Source: Vibrio gallicus (GTDB lineage: Bacteria; Pseudomonadota; Gammaproteobacteria; Enterobacterales; Vibrionaceae). Taken from it: a stretch of DNA of 64,000 nt. A program made the translations under genes and the position numbers. The stretch lies in contig NZ_AP024872.1 of assembly GCF_024346875.1 (NCBI RefSeq), forward strand, positions 868,001 to 932,000. Direction: 5' to 3'. Shown here piece after piece: positions 9,753 through 37,804 of the stretch. Below the pieces are notes generated by a model. That model ran no database searches, had not been told where the DNA came from, and saw only the letters and a program-made list of their open reading frames with translations. Positions within the stretch are counted from its first letter, which is position 1, and every line of letters begins with the position of its first letter.

Positions 9753-10112
9753 ATTTATCCCTAAATCACACCACTCAATTTGTTATGTTATAACATAACG
9801 ATAATGTGGTATTCCAATACAACTAATGGCAGCATCGCTACTTTTACCAATCGAAAATACTCTATGAGTCTGATTTAAAAGGGAAAAACACGTAATCAAC
9901 CAAATATTGAATATTAATTTTACTTTTTGAGCTGTTTATTAGGGAGGTTAAAATTAAGATGAACATTAATTACAGCGCTTAAAATTAGCTCAAGCTATCT
10001 TATTTTGAATGTCGTAAATCTGATGAAATATATCTATTTAAAACACAAATTTGGCGTGGTTATATTATTTCACTCAACCCAAAGAGTATATTGAGTGCCA
10101 TTTATTGCATAC
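9753..10112. other. Intergenic region between the lipoprotein and methyltransferase genes
   Basis: Very AT-rich. Apart from the Zur-like palindrome close to 9790 and the methyltransferase terminator at its right end, I see no gene, repeat or conserved structure. Confidence 0.5.
9777..9799. promoter_or_regulatory. Candidate Zur (zinc uptake regulator) box
   Basis: The region contains the perfect 18-bp palindrome GTTATGTTATAACATAAC at 9782-9799. Aligned to the gammaproteobacterial Zur consensus (halves GAAATGTTATA and TATAACATTTC) it matches about 16 of 22 positions. It lies just upstream of the lipoprotein ATG at 9752, in promoter position. The core ATGTTATAACAT is shared with the stronger site at 16004-16026. 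Confidence 0.55.
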
Positions 10113-10141
10113 AAAAAAGCAGAGCTATTAGCTCTGCTTTG
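10113..10141 (-). terminator. Terminator of the TrmH-family gene
   Basis: GCAGAGCT (10119-10126) pairs with AGCTCTGC (10130-10137) across a 3-base loop; the minus strand then runs into six T. A short T-run on the plus side also exists. Confidence 0.8.
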
Positions 10142-10174
10142 TATCGATTGGATGGTAATTATTTGACCAAATAC

Positions 10175-10693
10175 CTAAAGACTTGCTGTTTTAACTTTTA
10201 GGTGATTTCGGTTATCACGGCTGCTGCGGATCAAGTCTTCACTTTCATCCATATTGTCTGATTTTGCCAAGCGATCGTAGAGTAATACATTGACGGTTGC
10301 CGCAAGGTTCATACAGCCAATAGTAGGTACATAGACAACATGATGGGCTTTATCTGCAACATCTTGGCTGATTGAGCCATCTTCAGGGCCAAAGATATAC
10401 ATCGCCTTTTTGGGGTGCTGAAAACGAGGAAGCGGGGTTGCTCCCTCGGCTAATTCCACACACACGATTTCAGTTTCAGGATCAAGATCATCTAGAAATG
10501 AATCTACTGCAGACAATGGTATGGTGCGAGCTGCGCTCTTTGTATCCGTATGAAATTTACTGGCTTTCTCGTAACGCTGCCCAGTATATTTTACTTCATC
10601 AACCTGATAGCAACCTGAGGCACGCATTACCGCACCAACATTAGTTGGGCTTTTAGGATTGGTTAAACCAATGGTGACATGGTTTGTTTTCAT
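10175..10693 (-). CDS. TrmH/SpoU-family RNA 2'-O-methyltransferase
   Basis: A 172-residue SPOUT-class methyltransferase that uses S-adenosylmethionine to methylate the ribose of an RNA nucleotide. The three SpoU motifs are present: motif 1 NPKSPTNVGAVMRASG (with the conserved Asn and Arg), motif 2 MYIFGPEDGS and motif 3 VYVPTIGCMNLAATVNVLLYD, which forms the trefoil-knot cofactor pocket. The start ATG at 10693 is preferred because GAGAAAGG precedes it and homologues begin near the THVTIGL strand; an upstream start would add 30 non-conserved residues. It lacks the N-terminal substrate domain of TrmH/RlmB, so it resembles TrmL-like small members. The RNA target is not known. Confidence 0.85.
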   Translation of the reverse strand: MKTNHVTIGLTNPKSPTNVGAVMRASGCYQVDEVKYTGQRYEKASKFHTDTKSAARTIPLSAVDSFLDDLDPETEIVCVELAEGATPLPRFQHPKKAMYIFGPEDGSISQDVADKAHHVVYVPTIGCMNLAATVNVLLYDRLAKSDNMDESEDLIRSSRDNRNHLKVKTASL

Positions 10694-10777
10694 CGCCTTT
10701 CTCGCTTTCAAATCAACACAGCTAGCTAAATAAGGGCGGCATTCTATCAAAGCTATCATCAATACAAAAGTAGCAAC

Positions 10778-10801
10778 CACCACTGATTAAAACAGCAGTG
10801 G
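10778..10801 (-). terminator. Probable terminator of the Nik/Opp operon
   Basis: ACCACTG and CAGTGGT pair around an ATTAAAACAG loop. It lies 32 bases past the stop of the fused ATPase gene. The T-run on the minus strand is short, so termination strength is uncertain. Confidence 0.5.
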
Positions 10802-10832
10802 TTGCGAGTTTAAGATATTTTCAATGCTCGAT

Positions 10833-12236
10833 TTATAAACGAATCACAGTATCACAGCACTTATCTATCATATGTGGATCGTGGCTCACTAAAAGAAGTG
10901 CACAGCCTTGCTCTTTTGCTAACGCCACTAATAAGTCTGTCACCTCTTTGGCTGTAATTGGATCAAGACGGGATGTCGGCTCATCAGCAAACAGGAATAA
11001 TGGGTCGAGGAGTAAAGCGCGAAAAATAGCAAAACGCTGAAGCTCTCCCCCAGATACCCCAGTACTGTTTCGCTGTAAAAGCTCAGGATCTAACTTTAGC
11101 TTTGCCATCAAAGGCGCAACTCTTTGGCGATCAAGTTGATGCAGTTTAATCACATCTTCGAGCAAAACACCGAGTGTCACACTTGAAGTAAATGCAGCGG
11201 GTGGGTCTTGGAACAGCTTCAACCATTGATAAGGTTTCGCCCCTTGAGCCAGTTTATTCACCTGGCCTTTTATCGGCTTTAATAAACCAAGCAAGGTATC
11301 ACCCAAGGTACTTTTACCACATCCGCTATCACCGACTACCCCGACGATTTCACCAGCATGGATGGTGAAGTTGATGCCATCAGAGAGCGCCTCACCATTA
11401 CGGCCAATCGCTAACCCATTAACGTCAAGCACCGCTGTTTGTTTAACCGGTGTTTTGTCTTGGTCAGGCCAATGACGCGGGTCTGCGTTAATTAAAGATT
11501 GAGTATACTCATGCTGGGGCGCATTCAGTACTCCATCGGCGCTGCCTTGCTCCACCACTACCCCTTGTTTCATGACAATGATGTCACCACCTATCTGGCG
11601 GGCAACCTCAATATCATGGGTAATAGTCAATAAACCGCCACCTTTTGCGCTTTGCATAAGCAGTTGGATAATGTCATCACGACGACTGACATCCAGCCCT
11701 TTGGTGGGCTCATCGGCAAGCACTAGTTTTGCGCCGCCTGCAGTAGCCGCAATAACGGCTAAACGCTGTGCCATCCCACCCGACAATTGACCCGGTCTTT
11801 TCATAGCACTGCTTTTCAGCCCAACCTTATCCAGATCTTTTTGCGATTGGTAATATGCCGATTCTTCATCCAGACCATGTAAACACTCATACACCTCAGA
11901 AACCTGCTTGTAGGCTGGCATTAAAGGGTCAAGTGCACGCCAAGGCTCTTGCGGCAGCATGATAACCTCTTTGCCCCATAGCTCAATCAAAGAGTCTCTG
12001 TTATGGGTTTGACCGAATAATTCAACCCGTCCGTTATAGCTCAACTCACTAGGCAGTAAACCGACTATTGCTTGCGCGAGTAGGCTTTTGCCCGAACCCG
12101 TCTGCCCAAGAATAGTCAATGGCCTATCTTGATAGAGGCGTAATGACAAAGGTTGCAACAGTTCAACCGATTGGGTAGCGGCATCACTTGCTTGAGTATG
12201 AATGGATAGATCAGTCAGCTGAATTAAGAGATGCAC
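10833..12236 (-). CDS. ABC importer, fused double ATPase subunit (NikDE/DppDF-like)
   Basis: The 467-residue protein contains two complete ABC ATPase domains in one chain, which in NikDE or DppDF are separate proteins. Domain 1 has Walker A GQTGSGKS, signature LSGGMAQR and Walker B LVLADEPTKGLD; domain 2 has GDSGCGKS, VSGGELQR and LFLFADEPTSRLD. It powers uptake through the two permeases upstream. Translation starts at a GTG at 12236, supported by AGGAG eight bases before it, inside the end of the permease gene (26-base overlap), so expression is coupled. A fused form is common in small metal or peptide importers. Substrate is inferred from the operon's Zur-like box to be a metal or metal chelate. 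Confidence 0.9.
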   Translation of the reverse strand: MHLLIQLTDLSIHTQASDAATQSVELLQPLSLRLYQDRPLTILGQTGSGKSLLAQAIVGLLPSELSYNGRVELFGQTHNRDSLIELWGKEVIMLPQEPWRALDPLMPAYKQVSEVYECLHGLDEESAYYQSQKDLDKVGLKSSAMKRPGQLSGGMAQRLAVIAATAGGAKLVLADEPTKGLDVSRRDDIIQLLMQSAKGGGLLTITHDIEVARQIGGDIIVMKQGVVVEQGSADGVLNAPQHEYTQSLINADPRHWPDQDKTPVKQTAVLDVNGLAIGRNGEALSDGINFTIHAGEIVGVVGDSGCGKSTLGDTLLGLLKPIKGQVNKLAQGAKPYQWLKLFQDPPAAFTSSVTLGVLLEDVIKLHQLDRQRVAPLMAKLKLDPELLQRNSTGVSGGELQRFAIFRALLLDPLFLFADEPTSRLDPITAKEVTDLLVALAKEQGCALLLVSHDPHMIDKCCDTVIRL

Positions 12237-33288: not shown

Positions 33289-33615
33289 ATGAAGCTAGTT
33301 TGGACTTTGATGGCGGCATTAAGCTTTACCGCCACAGCAGATGCAGCCAAAGATGAACAGTTCGAAATTGGTAAAGCAAAAGCAAAGGTATGTATGACCT
33401 GCCACGGTAAAGATGGCATTTCAACTCTCGATCCCTACCCCAATCTTCGGGGACAAAAAATGGGATACCTCATCTCCTCGCTTAAAGACTACAAAGCGCG
33501 TGAACGAACCAGTGGATTAGCTATCTTGATGCAGCAACAGGTTGATACGCTCTCTGAGCAGGACATCCGAGATATTTCATACTTTTACTCACAACTCGGC
33601 AGTGACGCTAAGTAA
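33289..33615 (+). CDS. Periplasmic cytochrome c (single heme, c-type class I)
   Basis: A 108-residue exported monoheme cytochrome: signal peptide ending TADA, heme motif CMTCH (about 36-40) and the distal methionine probably in GLAILMQQQV. It is the first gene of the cbb3 cluster, nine bases before ccoN, with AAGGA before its ATG. By position it is likely an electron donor for the oxidase. Confidence 0.88.
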   Translation: MKLVWTLMAALSFTATADAAKDEQFEIGKAKAKVCMTCHGKDGISTLDPYPNLRGQKMGYLISSLKDYKARERTSGLAILMQQQVDTLSEQDIRDISYFYSQLGSDAK

Positions 33616-33624
33616 TCAGGGGAC

Positions 33625-35043
33625 ATGATGGATACAACAACTCCCGACTACAGCACTAAGGTCGTTAAATACTTTGTGGTGGCATCTGTCACTTGGGCAT
33701 TTATTGGGATGTTAATCGGTGTGATCCTTGCCGCTCAACTCTATTGGCCCATCCTAAATTTTAATTCTGAATATTTTCAATTTGGCCGATTGCGTCCGCT
33801 ACATACCTCCGGGGTTATTTACGGCTTCGTGGTCAATATATTGATGGGTGCCTCTCTCTATATCGCACAAAAAACAGGGCACTGCGAACTCTTCAACAAG
33901 AGCCTCGCATGGATGGTATTTTGGGGATGGCAGTTGGTATTATTACTGGCAGTACTGACCTTACCTCTCGGTTATACCACCTCAAAAGAGTATGCTGAAC
34001 TAGAGTGGCCTATCGACCTACTAATCGTACTGGTGTGGGTGCTTTATGCCATTCTATTCTTTGGCACCATAGCCAAAAGAAAGATCAATCATATCTTTGT
34101 TGCCAACTGGTTTTTTGCCGCTTTCATTATAGTTATCGCATTGATATTTATTGTAAATAACCTAGCAATGCCTGCCTCACTTACCAAATCGTATTCGGTG
34201 TTTGCCGGCGCACAAGATGCCATAGTTCAATGGTGGTGGGGACACAACGCTGTAGGCTTCTTATTGACTGCAGGTGTCATAGGTATGAACTACTACTTTA
34301 TTCCCAAGGTAGCAGAGCGTCCCATCTATTCTTATCGTTTATCCGTTATTCACTTCTGGGGTCTAGTCGGTTTTTATACTTGGGCTGGAACTCACCACTT
34401 AGTGTACTCATCTGTACCCGTTTGGTTGCAAAACATTGGTATTGTGATGTCCTTGATTCTTTGGCTACCATCTTGGGCTGGGGCATTTAATAGTGGTATG
34501 ACACTCTGGCAGAACAAAGAAAAAATGAAGAACGATTACATAATGCTGTTCTTCTTCTCTGCGGTACTCTATTACTGCTTAGCAACGTTTGAAGGTCCAC
34601 TATTAGCAATTCGCTGGTTTAACATGGTCGCCCACAACAGTGAATGGATAATTGGGCATGTACACTCCGCCGCATTAGGTTGGGTTGGGATGTCCGGTAT
34701 TGCGGTATTTTATTACTTTATACCTCGCCTATGGGGTAAAGAGCAGCTCTGGTCAAATCGCCTAATCAAATGGCACTTCTGGCTAGCCCATGCAGGGGTT
34801 GCAATTTACGCCATAGCCCTTTGGGTAGCGGGTATTGGTGAAGGGTATATGTGGTTAGCTCAACAAGAAAACGGTGAGCTTATCTACAGTTTCGTGGAAG
34901 CTATGGACTTCAAAGCACCTTGGCTATTTCTTCGATTCTTTGGCGGTTCACTGTTTGTTATTGGCCTGGTTCTTATGATCTATAACCTCTATCGCACAGT
35001 GAATATGCCCAGACCTATCCTTGCTCGGGGGATAAAATCATGA
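33625..35043 (+). CDS. ccoN: cbb3-type cytochrome c oxidase subunit I
   Basis: The 472-residue catalytic heme-copper subunit, an inner-membrane protein of about 12 helices that reduces oxygen with high affinity. Metal-ligand regions are recognisable: RPLHTSGVIYGF (low-spin heme), WWWGHNAVGF and GTHHLVYSSVP (copper site histidines), and IGHVHSAALGW (hemes b and b3). No subunit-specific insertion or truncation is seen. The start is one of two adjacent ATGs after AGGGGA. The downstream ccoO start overlaps the stop by four bases. Confidence 0.95.
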   Translation: MMDTTTPDYSTKVVKYFVVASVTWAFIGMLIGVILAAQLYWPILNFNSEYFQFGRLRPLHTSGVIYGFVVNILMGASLYIAQKTGHCELFNKSLAWMVFWGWQLVLLLAVLTLPLGYTTSKEYAELEWPIDLLIVLVWVLYAILFFGTIAKRKINHIFVANWFFAAFIIVIALIFIVNNLAMPASLTKSYSVFAGAQDAIVQWWWGHNAVGFLLTAGVIGMNYYFIPKVAERPIYSYRLSVIHFWGLVGFYTWAGTHHLVYSSVPVWLQNIGIVMSLILWLPSWAGAFNSGMTLWQNKEKMKNDYIMLFFFSAVLYYCLATFEGPLLAIRWFNMVAHNSEWIIGHVHSAALGWVGMSGIAVFYYFIPRLWGKEQLWSNRLIKWHFWLAHAGVAIYAIALWVAGIGEGYMWLAQQENGELIYSFVEAMDFKAPWLFLRFFGGSLFVIGLVLMIYNLYRTVNMPRPILARGIKS

Positions 35044-35648
35044 ATAAAGACTTCACTCAATCAGTGGTGATTTTGATCATCACCACTATAGTCGTTGCCT
35101 CATTTTCCATCATAGTGCTATTGGTTCCAAACCTAGTGCGTGGCGACGATATCGCCAAAGGCAGCCTAGCTAAACCCTTAACCGCAGTGCAGGTCGCTGG
35201 GCGAGATATCTATATTAGTGAGGGGTGCCATGTTTGTCACACCCAGATGGTGCGCCCTCTTGAACCGGAAACCAAACGCAATGGCAGGCCCAATCAAGAG
35301 TCGGATGATATCTACGAATTCCCAAATTTATGGGGCTCAAAGCGAACAGGACCAGACTTAACCAATCTAGGTCGCAAATACTCTGACCAATGGCATGTAC
35401 TGCACTTGGTTGATCCTCGAGCTGTGGTTCCGACCTCTATAATGCCCGCTTATCCGTGGTTATTTGAACAAAAGCTCTCCGGTGACGATATCACCAACAA
35501 GATGGAGACATTGCGTATTCTTGGCGTGCCATATACCGATGAAGACATCGCGAATGCAAGACTTCAGGTAAGAGGAAAAACCAAGGGTGAAGCACTAATT
35601 CACTACCTGCAAAGCCTAGGGATTGATACCGCAGCGGAGGCCATGTAA
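35040..35648 (+). CDS. ccoO: cbb3-type cytochrome c oxidase subunit II
   Basis: A 202-residue membrane-anchored monoheme cytochrome: one N-terminal helix (VVILIITTIVVASFSIIVLLVP) and the heme motif CHVCH in ISEGCHVCHTQMVRPL. It accepts electrons from the last subunit and passes them to CcoN. It overlaps both neighbours (ATGA with ccoN and TAATG with the fused subunit). No ccoQ gene follows, unlike the standard ccoNOQP order. Confidence 0.95.
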   Translation: MNKDFTQSVVILIITTIVVASFSIIVLLVPNLVRGDDIAKGSLAKPLTAVQVAGRDIYISEGCHVCHTQMVRPLEPETKRNGRPNQESDDIYEFPNLWGSKRTGPDLTNLGRKYSDQWHVLHLVDPRAVVPTSIMPAYPWLFEQKLSGDDITNKMETLRILGVPYTDEDIANARLQVRGKTKGEALIHYLQSLGIDTAAEAM

Positions 35649-37804
35649 TGAGTAACTTTTGGAATTTATGGACCATCCTAAGCATCATCTCATTTTCTAT
35701 CGTGATGATAATTGTTGTGGTCTATTACTGGAGAAAAAACCACACCGCCGACGCTGACAAAACCTTAGATACCTTTGATGGCGTGGCTGAAAACGATGCA
35801 CCAGCACCTAAACTATTGTTTATCGCCTACGCAATAGCCTTAGTAATAGCCGTTGGTTACCTTATTTTATACCCGGGAATGGGAAACTGGCACGGCTTAG
35901 TAGATTGGGAGCAGAGTGAGGATAAACTCAGTACTCCTACTACCAATTTAGACCAACAGTTTGCGCAACTATCTGACGTATCATTAGCCTCACTAGCGAC
36001 CAATGATGCCATTACCAATAGCGGAGCAATGTTATTTAAAACTCATTGCGCCGCTTGTCACCGAGACAACGCTCAAGGACAAAAGCATTTTCCAAACCTT
36101 ATCGATAATGACTGGATGTACGGGGGCAGCGATCAGGCAATCCTGCATTCTATCGAGAAGGGGCGCAACGGTGCCATGGCGGGTTATTTAGAGATACTCA
36201 CTGAAGATGAAATCGCCAAAGTATCTTACTACTTAGCCTCACTCAATCAACGTCATACCGATGTCCCCCCCGTCAAGGTAGAGTTGGGTAAACAAACCTT
36301 TATGCAGTATTGTTCTGCTTGCCATGGCGATGGCTCTCATTCAAACCAAGATATGGGCGTTCCCGTATTATCCGATGACACCTGGCTACATGGCGGCAGT
36401 ATCGAAGAGATCCAACATACCATTCTCTATGGCCTCAATAACGTCATGCCTGCATTTGAAAAGCAGTTATCTCGCAACGAGATTCTAGCTATCGGTGCCA
36501 TGCTAACCAAGGCGCGCCTTGACTATGATGACAAGCTTGCAAAATTAGACCAAAGTGCTGTTACTCGTGGAGAGTACCTAGCGCATGCAGGTGATTGTGT
36601 TGCCTGTCACAGCGCCGAAGGGGGCGAACCCTTTGCTGGCGGACTGCCTTTTGTGACACCATTTGGTACCGTCTATTCTACCAACATCACTCCTCATAGC
36701 AGTGAGGGTATTGGTGAATATGACTTTGATGACTTTAAAGCGGCACTGGTCGATGGCAAAGGGCGCCATGGATACTTGTATCCGGCAATGCCTTATACCT
36801 CATATCAACACGTCTCAGAACAAGACATGCGCGATATGTGGGAGTACCTACAATCTATCACTGCGGTTCCTCGCCGCAATGACGACAACAGTATGATATT
36901 CCCATCCAATATCCGCCTTGGCTTGTTGGGATGGAATGTTGTATTCATGGATACCGCCCCGCTCTCTTATGAGGTACCAGCTGAATTGGGTGATACCGTT
37001 GAAGATATTGAAAAGTGGCAACAAGGAAAATACTGGGTAGCCGGTCTTGGTCACTGCTCTGAGTGCCACTCCCCGAGAAACCTCGCCCAAGCGATTATTA
37101 GCGACCGTATCTTCCAAGGCAATATCATTGATGGTTGGAATGCTCCAGATATTACCGCCAATGAATTATACGTAGATGGATGGGACTTAGACTCTCTTAC
37201 TGACTTCCTGCACACAGGGCATTCAGACAAAGGCACCGCGTTTGCAGGTATGGCCGATGTAATTAAGAACAGTCTCAGTCTAATGACTCGAGAAGACGTT
37301 GAAAGTATGTCTTATTATCTACTCAAAGGTGATGTAAATAACAGCATCGCAACGGATTCGGTGGTGTTAAAACCAAAAGGCTTTAGCCAAGGCGCTTACA
37401 AAACCGAGATTTATAAAACCTATGCTCAAACCTGTGGTGCTTGTCATGGAGATGATGGTAAAGGACGCGAGCCTATCGCCCCTGCGCTATTAAACAATGG
37501 CATCATAATGCATCGCGACCCATTCAATACTATTGCAGTGGCGGTACGTGGTCTTCAGCCAACCTATCTGGTTGAAGATAAAAACTTCATGCCGATGGCA
37601 AGCTTTGAAGATGTACTGTCGGATCAACAGCTAGCCGATCTTATCACCTTTGTTCGTTATCATTTAGGCGCACGAGATATTCCAGTAACCACTGAGGATG
37701 TAAAAGACGTACGTGAAACACTAGAAAAAGCCGGCTATGCCGGTGGTGTGCACACCACACCAGATATGTACGACCAACGTGATAGGAATATTAATATCAA
37801 GTAG
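35648..37804 (+). CDS. CcoP-like oxidase subunit III fused to a three-heme dehydrogenase cytochrome
   Basis: A 718-residue pentaheme protein. Residues 1-85 are the CcoP N-terminus, with two helices (5-28 and 56-76) and the YPGMGNW segment. Two cytochrome c domains follow with CAACH at 134-138 and CSACH at 222-226, completing a normal CcoP of about 295 residues. The remainder holds CVACH (317-321), CSECH (470-474) and CGACH (596-600) in the pattern of the triheme subunit of alcohol/gluconate dehydrogenases: CVACHSAEGG, STNITPH, GKGRHGYLYPAMPYTS, HCSECHSPRNLAQA. The fusion would wire a periplasmic dehydrogenase or quinol source straight into the oxidase. No catalytic dehydrogenase gene is adjacent. 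Length is more than double that of ordinary CcoP. Confidence 0.93.
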   Translation: MSNFWNLWTILSIISFSIVMIIVVVYYWRKNHTADADKTLDTFDGVAENDAPAPKLLFIAYAIALVIAVGYLILYPGMGNWHGLVDWEQSEDKLSTPTTNLDQQFAQLSDVSLASLATNDAITNSGAMLFKTHCAACHRDNAQGQKHFPNLIDNDWMYGGSDQAILHSIEKGRNGAMAGYLEILTEDEIAKVSYYLASLNQRHTDVPPVKVELGKQTFMQYCSACHGDGSHSNQDMGVPVLSDDTWLHGGSIEEIQHTILYGLNNVMPAFEKQLSRNEILAIGAMLTKARLDYDDKLAKLDQSAVTRGEYLAHAGDCVACHSAEGGEPFAGGLPFVTPFGTVYSTNITPHSSEGIGEYDFDDFKAALVDGKGRHGYLYPAMPYTSYQHVSEQDMRDMWEYLQSITAVPRRNDDNSMIFPSNIRLGLLGWNVVFMDTAPLSYEVPAELGDTVEDIEKWQQGKYWVAGLGHCSECHSPRNLAQAIISDRIFQGNIIDGWNAPDITANELYVDGWDLDSLTDFLHTGHSDKGTAFAGMADVIKNSLSLMTREDVESMSYYLLKGDVNNSIATDSVVLKPKGFSQGAYKTEIYKTYAQTCGACHGDDGKGREPIAPALLNNGIIMHRDPFNTIAVAVRGLQPTYLVEDKNFMPMASFEDVLSDQQLADLITFVRYHLGARDIPVTTEDVKDVRETLEKAGYAGGVHTTPDMYDQRDRNINIK

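What the first reader, a model, noticed from the sequence alone, without database searches (positions are those of the whole stretch)
35648..37804. A pentaheme CcoP-triheme dehydrogenase fusion ends a ccoNO operon without ccoQ
The sequence shows five CXXCH motifs (residues 134, 222, 317, 470, 596) in a 718-residue protein. The N-terminal half is CcoP; the C-terminal half resembles the triheme cytochrome of alcohol or gluconate dehydrogenases (CVACHSAEGG, STNITPH, CSECHSPRN). A preceding monoheme cytochrome gene and the lack of ccoQ make this a non-standard oxidase. Inference: electrons from a periplasmic sugar or alcohol dehydrogenase could pass straight to the oxidase, bypassing the bc1 complex.
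Basis: partly seen in the sequence, partly recalled or inferred. Interest (0 to 1): 0.75.

Follow-up and report, generated by a model that had tools for sequence, protein, structure and literature searches.

The report
Five-heme fused oxygen-reductase subunit in vibrios
A marine Vibrio carries a second oxygen-consuming respiratory enzyme in which one subunit has been welded to a three-heme electron carrier normally found on sugar-, alcohol- and aldehyde-oxidising enzymes, yet no such enzyme was found in this bacterium, so what feeds it is an open question.

Summary
The 718-residue protein at 35648-37804 is a real fusion with five CXXCH motifs: residues 1-295 are CcoP, residues 300-695 a triheme cytochrome of the alcohol/fructose/aldehyde dehydrogenase type, by sequence and predicted fold. 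It ends a four-gene operon (c554-like monoheme cytochrome, ccoN, ccoO, fusion) without ccoQ. The operon recurs in 24 other named loci of Vibrio, Photobacterium, Aliivibrio, Shewanella and Psychromonas (decayed in two), and the gene in 37 of 118 sampled genomes of the genus. The fused trihemes form one clade that groups with trihemes of molybdenum-dehydrogenase operons; one fusion event is the simplest reading. A sequencing error is excluded. The genome also holds a canonical ccoNOQP cluster and a bc1 complex, so this is an accessory oxidase. The proposed sugar/alcohol-dehydrogenase donor is not supported: four family models for dehydrogenases that use such trihemes gave no match in this genome at the thresholds used (marginal for the molybdenum type), and none is part of the operon. 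Most likely the triheme arm is an added electron-entry port, fed by the co-encoded cytochrome or another donor such as quinol; the donor is unproven. Searches of an open paper library found no description. New variant of a known kind.

The parts
33289..33615 (+). monoheme class I cytochrome c (108 aa, signal-like N-terminus by reading, CMTCH), c554/c552/c4-like; first gene of the operon
   Evidence: phmmer to PDB 2zzs_A cytochrome c554 E 1.2e-22, c552 and c4 next; present in 25 of 25 loci
33625..35043 (+). ccoN, catalytic heme-copper subunit of a C-family (cbb3) oxidase
   Evidence: TIGR00780 592.6 over cut-off 583.15; aligned to 3mk7_A; 12 ligand, active-site and channel positions invariant in 23 intact operons (roles recalled)
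35040..35648 (+). ccoO, monoheme subunit
   Evidence: PF02433 FixO 3.9e-61; NF011055 over cut-off, TIGR00781 just under (199.4 against 200.65)
35648..36532 (+). CcoP half of the fusion, residues 1-295: two membrane-type helices and two c hemes (CXXCH 134, 222; putative Met ligands 177, 267)
36545..37732 (+). triheme half of the fusion, residues 300-695: three c hemes (CXXCH 317, 470, 596; putative Met ligands 381, 535, 648 or 650)
37733..37801 (+). hydrophilic C-terminal tail, residues 696-718; no hydrophobic anchor
   Evidence: largest 19-residue hydropathy mean in 601-718 is 0.63; low pLDDT 700-718

Best explanation
This is an accessory cbb3-type oxygen reductase whose CcoP subunit carries a covalently attached triheme module, related to the cytochrome subunit of molybdenum-type periplasmic dehydrogenases. 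The module extends the CcoP heme chain outward and gives the oxidase a second electron-entry port: donor -> triheme hemes -> CcoP hemes -> CcoO heme -> heme b -> heme b3/CuB -> O2. In this organism the feeding partner is most likely a small c-type cytochrome, first of all the c554-like protein encoded at the head of the operon (which could collect from bc1 or from periplasmic donors), rather than a classical sugar or alcohol dehydrogenase. Shown: fusion, five heme motifs and conserved candidate ligands, conserved active site, operon, single clade, no dehydrogenase found at the thresholds used. Inferred: direction of flow, heme spacing, identity of the donor.
For: Both halves verified by sequence and by predicted fold. 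CcoN keeps all 12 checked positions in 23 of 23 intact operons, so an active oxidase is expected. The c554-like gene heads 25 of 25 loci while the outer neighbourhood differs between lineages, so these four genes are the unit. The triheme half is more conserved than the CcoP half (73.6 against 64.9% all-pairs identity in 23 operons; 70.8 against 60.5% in 19 fusions), so it is hardly a vestige. Four dehydrogenase families gave no match in this genome; 31 of 37 fusion-bearing genus genomes show no PF13618, no TIGR03075 over cut-off and no PF20256 protein other than roughly 800-aa XdhB-like ones. A canonical ccoN-O-Q-P cluster is elsewhere and bc1 is present. The linker 276-299 is predicted helical, pLDDT 89-96 in the blocks 271-310, which suits a fixed heme path.
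Against: No redox, spectroscopic or expression data. No coordinates were available to measure heme-heme distances. A c554-like gene in the operon does not prove that it docks on the triheme arm; it could feed CcoP directly and leave the arm to another donor. In two named loci a molybdenum dehydrogenase operon with its own triheme lies next door (L035, L041), which points back to a dehydrogenase. The PF20256 threshold (1e-15) was too strict to exclude a lone molybdenum dehydrogenase of the triheme-linked type in this genome, and dehydrogenases outside the four families were not searched.
Confidence: 0.43

Rival explanations
1. One reading: a periplasmic dehydrogenase docks on the triheme arm and sends its electrons straight to the oxidase, bypassing quinone and bc1.
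For: The C-half belongs to the family of such dehydrogenases' cytochrome subunits. In Psychromonas marina (L035) and Photobacterium profundum (L041) a molybdenum dehydrogenase operon with its own triheme is adjacent, in L041 divergently transcribed (large subunits confirmed by PF02738 and PF20256). In the family sample unfused trihemes occur in 8 of 50 fusion-bearing against 7 of 109 other genomes, one-sided Fisher P 0.055, relatedness ignored. A lone molybdenum dehydrogenase in the window's genome is not excluded, because the threshold was strict.
Against: Own genome: no PF05199, PF13618, TIGR03075 or PF20256 match at the thresholds used and no unfused triheme at E 1e-25. Among the 24 named loci, tblastn with molybdenum and GMC dehydrogenase queries finds neighbours only in L035 and L041. 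Only 6 of 37 fusion-bearing genus genomes hold a candidate by three families (GMC not surveyed beyond the window's genome).
Confidence: 0.23
2. The triheme arm oxidises ubiquinol at the membrane, so the enzyme is a self-contained bc1-independent cbb3-type quinol oxidase.
For: The triheme subunit of acetic-acid-bacteria alcohol dehydrogenase is described as reducing ubiquinone, and the enzyme as having a high-affinity quinone site (PMC9171043, passages read). No dehydrogenase partner is conserved in the operon. The fusion is tied to the membrane by the CcoP helices.
Against: A hydrophobic C-terminal region, which the title of PDB entry 9jqa indicates for fructose dehydrogenase (listed with its title cut), has no counterpart here. 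No quinone site was shown. All 50 fusion-bearing genomes in the family sample keep bc1, and the operon brings its own small cytochrome.
Confidence: 0.17
3. The arm is an exit or exchange port or electron store: it hands electrons from the CcoP chain to another periplasmic acceptor, as the third CcoP heme of Neisseria does for nitrite reduction.
For: Neisseria precedent: the third CcoP heme supports nitrite reduction (PMC2924362, passages read).
Against: No single outside gene is conserved across the neighbourhoods: beyond the four operon genes the widest cluster reaches 8 of 28 loci. The extra module is of dehydrogenase-cytochrome type, not the c5 type of Neisseria.
Confidence: 0.1
4. The long reading frame is an artefact: two genes merged by a sequencing error, or a decayed gene.
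For: Decay does occur elsewhere: in both V. maritimus assemblies (L042, L043) the gene is frameshifted and ccoN is broken or shortened too; G115, G063 and G083 also have interrupted or short frames.
Against: The whole frame is found in 22 of 24 named loci; all five CXXCH and the candidate Met ligands are invariant in 19 fusions.
Confidence: 0.01

Closest known systems
Canonical cbb3 oxidase CcoNOQP (P. stutzeri 3mk7, P. aeruginosa 8smr/8snh; this genome's own C1 cluster)
   Same: CcoN active site, CcoO, CcoP with two membrane helices and two hemes
   Different: No CcoQ, own c554-like gene at the head, CcoP carries a further triheme module; CcoN only 50% identical to the canonical copy in the same genome
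Triheme cytochrome subunit of membrane-bound dehydrogenases (ADH 8gy2_B, FDH 7w2j_C/8jej_C, GDH 8hdd_B, aldehyde DH 8gy3_A)
   Same: Three CXXCH, fold over residues 300-702
   Different: Fused to an oxidase subunit instead of paired with a dehydrogenase; no hydrophobic tail
Neisseria tri-heme CcoP
   Same: CcoP lengthened at the C-terminus by extra heme domain(s) through gene fusion
   Different: There one heme from cytochrome c5; here three hemes of a dehydrogenase-type cytochrome
Other long proteins that contain a triheme of this type
   Same: The same module seems to move as a fusion partner
   Different: Open frames over 1000 codons at triheme matches suggest fusion to dehydrogenases; their other half was not examined here

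Membership tests
C-family (cbb3) heme-copper oxidase | CcoN heme and CuB ligands, cross-link Tyr, K-channel residues (roles recalled) | tested here: met
   12 of 12 positions kept in 23 of 23 intact operons
C-family (cbb3) heme-copper oxidase | CcoO monoheme subunit | tested here: met
   PF02433 E 3.9e-61, NF011055 over cut-off
C-family (cbb3) heme-copper oxidase | CcoP with FixP_N and two hemes | tested here: met
C-family (cbb3) heme-copper oxidase | CcoQ in the operon (common, not defining) | tested here: not met
   gap between ccoO and the fusion is -29 to +2 bases (predicted starts) in the 23 intact operons
C-family (cbb3) heme-copper oxidase | O2 reduction and proton pumping | not testable with these tools
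   needs enzyme
Triheme cytochrome subunit of membrane-bound dehydrogenases | three c hemes and homology over the whole module | tested here: met
Triheme cytochrome subunit of membrane-bound dehydrogenases | dehydrogenase partner encoded in the same operon | tested here: not met
   none among the four operon genes in 25 loci
Triheme cytochrome subunit of membrane-bound dehydrogenases | dehydrogenase partner anywhere in the genome | tested here: inconclusive
   four families without a match at the thresholds used; PF20256 threshold marginal
Triheme cytochrome subunit of membrane-bound dehydrogenases | hydrophobic C-terminal region (of the fructose enzyme) | tested here: not met
   hydropathy maximum 0.63 in residues 601-718
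Triheme cytochrome subunit of membrane-bound dehydrogenases | reaction with ubiquinone | not testable with these tools
   biochemistry needed
Neisseria-type tri-heme CcoP | one extra heme domain derived from cytochrome c5 | tested here: not met
   three extra hemes, dehydrogenase-cytochrome type

The most novel reading that the evidence does not exclude
A cbb3 oxidase that has internalised its own upstream electron collector and works as a one-complex, bc1-independent oxidase, fed directly by quinol or by periplasmic donors through a five-heme CcoP wire: a respiratory shortcut spread through Vibrionaceae and relatives.
Probability: 0.3. Interest if true: 0.8.

Novelty: new variant of a known kind. 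Interest (0 to 1): 0.52.

Why it matters
CcoP is as a rule a two-heme subunit. A five-heme CcoP with a dehydrogenase-type arm, more conserved than the CcoP part itself and found in about a third of the sampled Vibrio and Vibrionaceae genomes (37 of 118; 50 of 159), implies a branch of marine aerobic respiration that database names hide ('c-type cytochrome', 'diheme cytochrome c-553', 'thiosulfate dehydrogenase'). It makes a clear question testable: can a cbb3 oxidase take electrons without bc1?

Tried and rejected
Sequencing error or gene merger: rejected. Repeated CcoP-type domains in the C-half: rejected; 300-702 aligns to the dehydrogenase cytochromes. FNR control (consensus TTGATNNNNATCAA recalled): best upstream matches have 1 to 4 mismatches in 25 loci, 2 in the window; 3 of 25 (L038, L039, L047, all Aliivibrio, at -219 to -232) have 1 mismatch where simple shuffles predict about 0.8; no box conserved across the set. 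bc1 loss in fusion-bearing genomes: 0 of 50, so it says nothing for or against bypass. A nearer CcoN outside the fusion group: listed class matches are 47-55% identical (E up to 1e-150). Co-occurrence of the fusion with any PF20256 protein: 25 of 37 against 37 of 81, two-sided Fisher P 0.03; most of these proteins are about 770-850 aa and XdhB-like (label recalled, not searched), so I do not read it as a partner, relatedness ignored. Literature: ten searches of an open-licence library, seven of which bear on the fusion (the others, 17, 26, 35, on the dehydrogenases), gave no description of it in their listings; both hits use 'pentaheme' for NrfA (passages). PMC3084760 (passages) says nothing on it in the passages shown. 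Most subscription papers are not held, so novelty in print is not shown. Foldseek rows for thiosulfate dehydrogenase are weak (E 0.1). The adjacency evidence is small: L035 and L041 among 24 named loci, and G636, one of 8 family-sample genomes with both genes, which may be the same species as L041.

Rows dropped: 21 of 90 sequences, near-duplicates and the two frameshifted V. maritimus copies, left out of the tree. L042 and L043 are not. L048-L050 are ordinary CcoP loci and are not counted as fusions. The 37 of 118 and 50 of 159 include some interrupted or short frames (G063, G083, G115, G065; G622).

Full report
What is there. The window lies in contig C2 of a 3.5 Mb two-contig genome; the nearest named relatives of the fusion are V. 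comitans, V. breoganii, V. superstes and V. inusitatus at 82-83% identity, so it is a Vibrio of that kin. Four genes run head to tail: a monoheme cytochrome c (33289-33615), ccoN (33625-35043), ccoO (35040-35648) and the fusion (35648-37804). Gaps are 9, -4 and -1 bases, so they look like one transcription unit without room for ccoQ.

Spread. A scan of GTDB species contigs with six patterns returned 27 relatives, 24 of them the fusion, in Vibrio, Photobacterium, Aliivibrio, Shewanella and Psychromonas. In 118 genomes of the genus 39 match the triheme query; 37 of them carry the fused gene (a few interrupted), G010 and G126 only unfused trihemes. In 159 genomes of the family 50 carry it. In 398 genomes of the phylum, 112 match; the matches clearly of the fused kind (57-100% identity) are 5, all in the window's genus; the other listed ones are 32-42% identical (the list was cut). 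I fetched 20 regions with unfused or other trihemes (13 from the phylum sample, 1, 6 from the genus). In the 18 where the triheme frame was among the called ORFs no CcoP match appeared; in the other two (L110, L117) it was not called, and in L110 the match starts at residue 82, too early for a CcoP in front.

Origin. A tree of 69 trihemes puts the 29 fused ones in one clade (100/100) on a long stem, and one well-supported branch (98/96) sets them together with 11 of 13 trihemes from loci with molybdenum dehydrogenase genes apart from the flavin-dehydrogenase ones (partner labels by tblastn; of the five query partners three, from L116 and L119, were checked and are PF02738/PF20256, Fer2_2 and GMC proteins). 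The order within that group is unresolved and the root not inferred. One fusion event is the simplest reading. CcoN of this operon is 50% identical to the canonical CcoN of the same genome and at most 55% to the other class matches, so this oxidase looks like an old separate line.

Context. In 25 loci (window plus 24) the monoheme gene stands first in all, followed by ccoN, ccoO and the fusion; in L042 and L043 (V. maritimus) ccoN and the fusion are broken or shortened. Genes outside differ by lineage: seven Vibrio loci share nitrate-assimilation-like genes upstream (named by reading); in Shewanella L034 a DAO-type FAD oxidoreductase gene (PF01266) stands 477 bases upstream on the same strand, and L045 has the same cluster there. 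In L035 and L041 a molybdenum dehydrogenase operon with its own triheme is adjacent. The monoheme protein is most like cytochrome c554 (PDB 2zzs), c552 and c4; c4 is a chain of the P. aeruginosa bc1-cbb3 entries 8smr and 8snh. The genome also has a canonical cluster: ccoN, ccoO, a 57-aa FixQ/CcoQ (PF05545), a two-heme ccoP, a gene at the usual place of ccoH (no NCBIfam match), a copper-type P-ATPase at the place of ccoI, and ccoS. bc1 is present (cytochrome c1 pieces E about 1e-6; cytochrome b PF00032 E 3.9e-38).

Who feeds it. Trihemes of this kind pair with PQQ, flavin or molybdenum dehydrogenases (PMC9171043, passages read; PMC6472588, passages read). This genome gave no match to PF05199 (E up to 1e-3), PF13618 (1e-5), TIGR03075 (1e-10) or PF20256 (1e-15). 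Each model rang in some of 14 control genomes, though TIGR03075 passed its cut-off in none of them. The PF20256 threshold matters: triheme-linked molybdenum dehydrogenases in G067 and G135 scored 6.7e-16 and 1.3e-16 and that in G028 2.9e-25, so a lone one could lie below it here; an unfused triheme, which accompanies those, is absent at E 1e-25. Of 37 fusion-bearing genus genomes PF13618 occurs in 1, TIGR03075 over cut-off in 1 and a PF20256 protein other than the XdhB-like ones in 4, together 6. GMC was searched in the window's genome only. Against my own reading stand the adjacency in L035, L041 and G636 and a weak excess of unfused trihemes in fusion-bearing genomes (8 of 50 against 7 of 109, P 0.055).

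Is the arm used? In 23 intact operons the triheme half is more conserved (73.6% all-pairs identity) than the CcoP half (64.9%), near the c554-like protein (74.8%) and ccoO (77.1%), below ccoN (83.5%). That is what one expects of a working port, not of a passenger.

Mechanism. I commit to an added electron-entry port on an accessory cbb3 oxidase, with the co-encoded c554-like protein as the likeliest donor (0.43), ahead of a dehydrogenase (0.23), direct quinol (0.17) and an exit or exchange port (0.1). Quinol stays open because the triheme subunit of alcohol dehydrogenase is said to reduce ubiquinone, but the fusion lacks a hydrophobic tail.

Known or new. The nearest precedent is the Neisseria tri-heme CcoP, a fusion with cytochrome c5, whose authors in 2010 contrasted it with a di-heme form in all other CcoP proteins (PMC2924362, passages read). 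My paper searches gave no account of the present fusion. I rate it a new variant of a known kind.

Noticed in passing
L042 and L043, about 10001-12150: In both Vibrio maritimus assemblies the fusion is split by a frameshift after the first CcoP heme and ccoN is broken or shortened too, so the operon looks to be decaying there.
   Followed up: partly
L035:12544-18200 and L041:2464-7174: A molybdenum dehydrogenase operon with its own triheme cytochrome lies next to the fused-oxidase operon, in different orientation in the two genomes.
   Followed up: partly
L107:4021-6111, L109:3360-5381, and L110 (open frame of 724 aa): Other proteins with five CXXCH in which a triheme of this family lies in the N-terminal part with two further hemes elsewhere in the chain.
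   Followed up: no
L044:5622-7820 and L046:10001-12187: Photobacterium lucens and P. kishitanii fusions are only 56% identical to the window's and carry an extra stretch before the last heme.
   Followed up: no
L034:5808-7172 (and the same cluster in L045): In two Shewanella loci a DAO-type FAD oxidoreductase gene, itself behind polyamine-transport-like genes (by reading), stands upstream of the operon on the same strand.
   Followed up: partly
window:35648-37804 relatives P0105, P0119, P0009: Databases name this protein 'thiosulfate dehydrogenase' or 'putative diheme cytochrome c-553', which hides the five-heme fusion.
   Followed up: no
L003 / L130 (C2:935516-936256, 3.5 kb beyond the window's end): A further, distantly related heme-copper oxidase subunit I-like frame (23% identity to the window's CcoN).
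   Followed up: no
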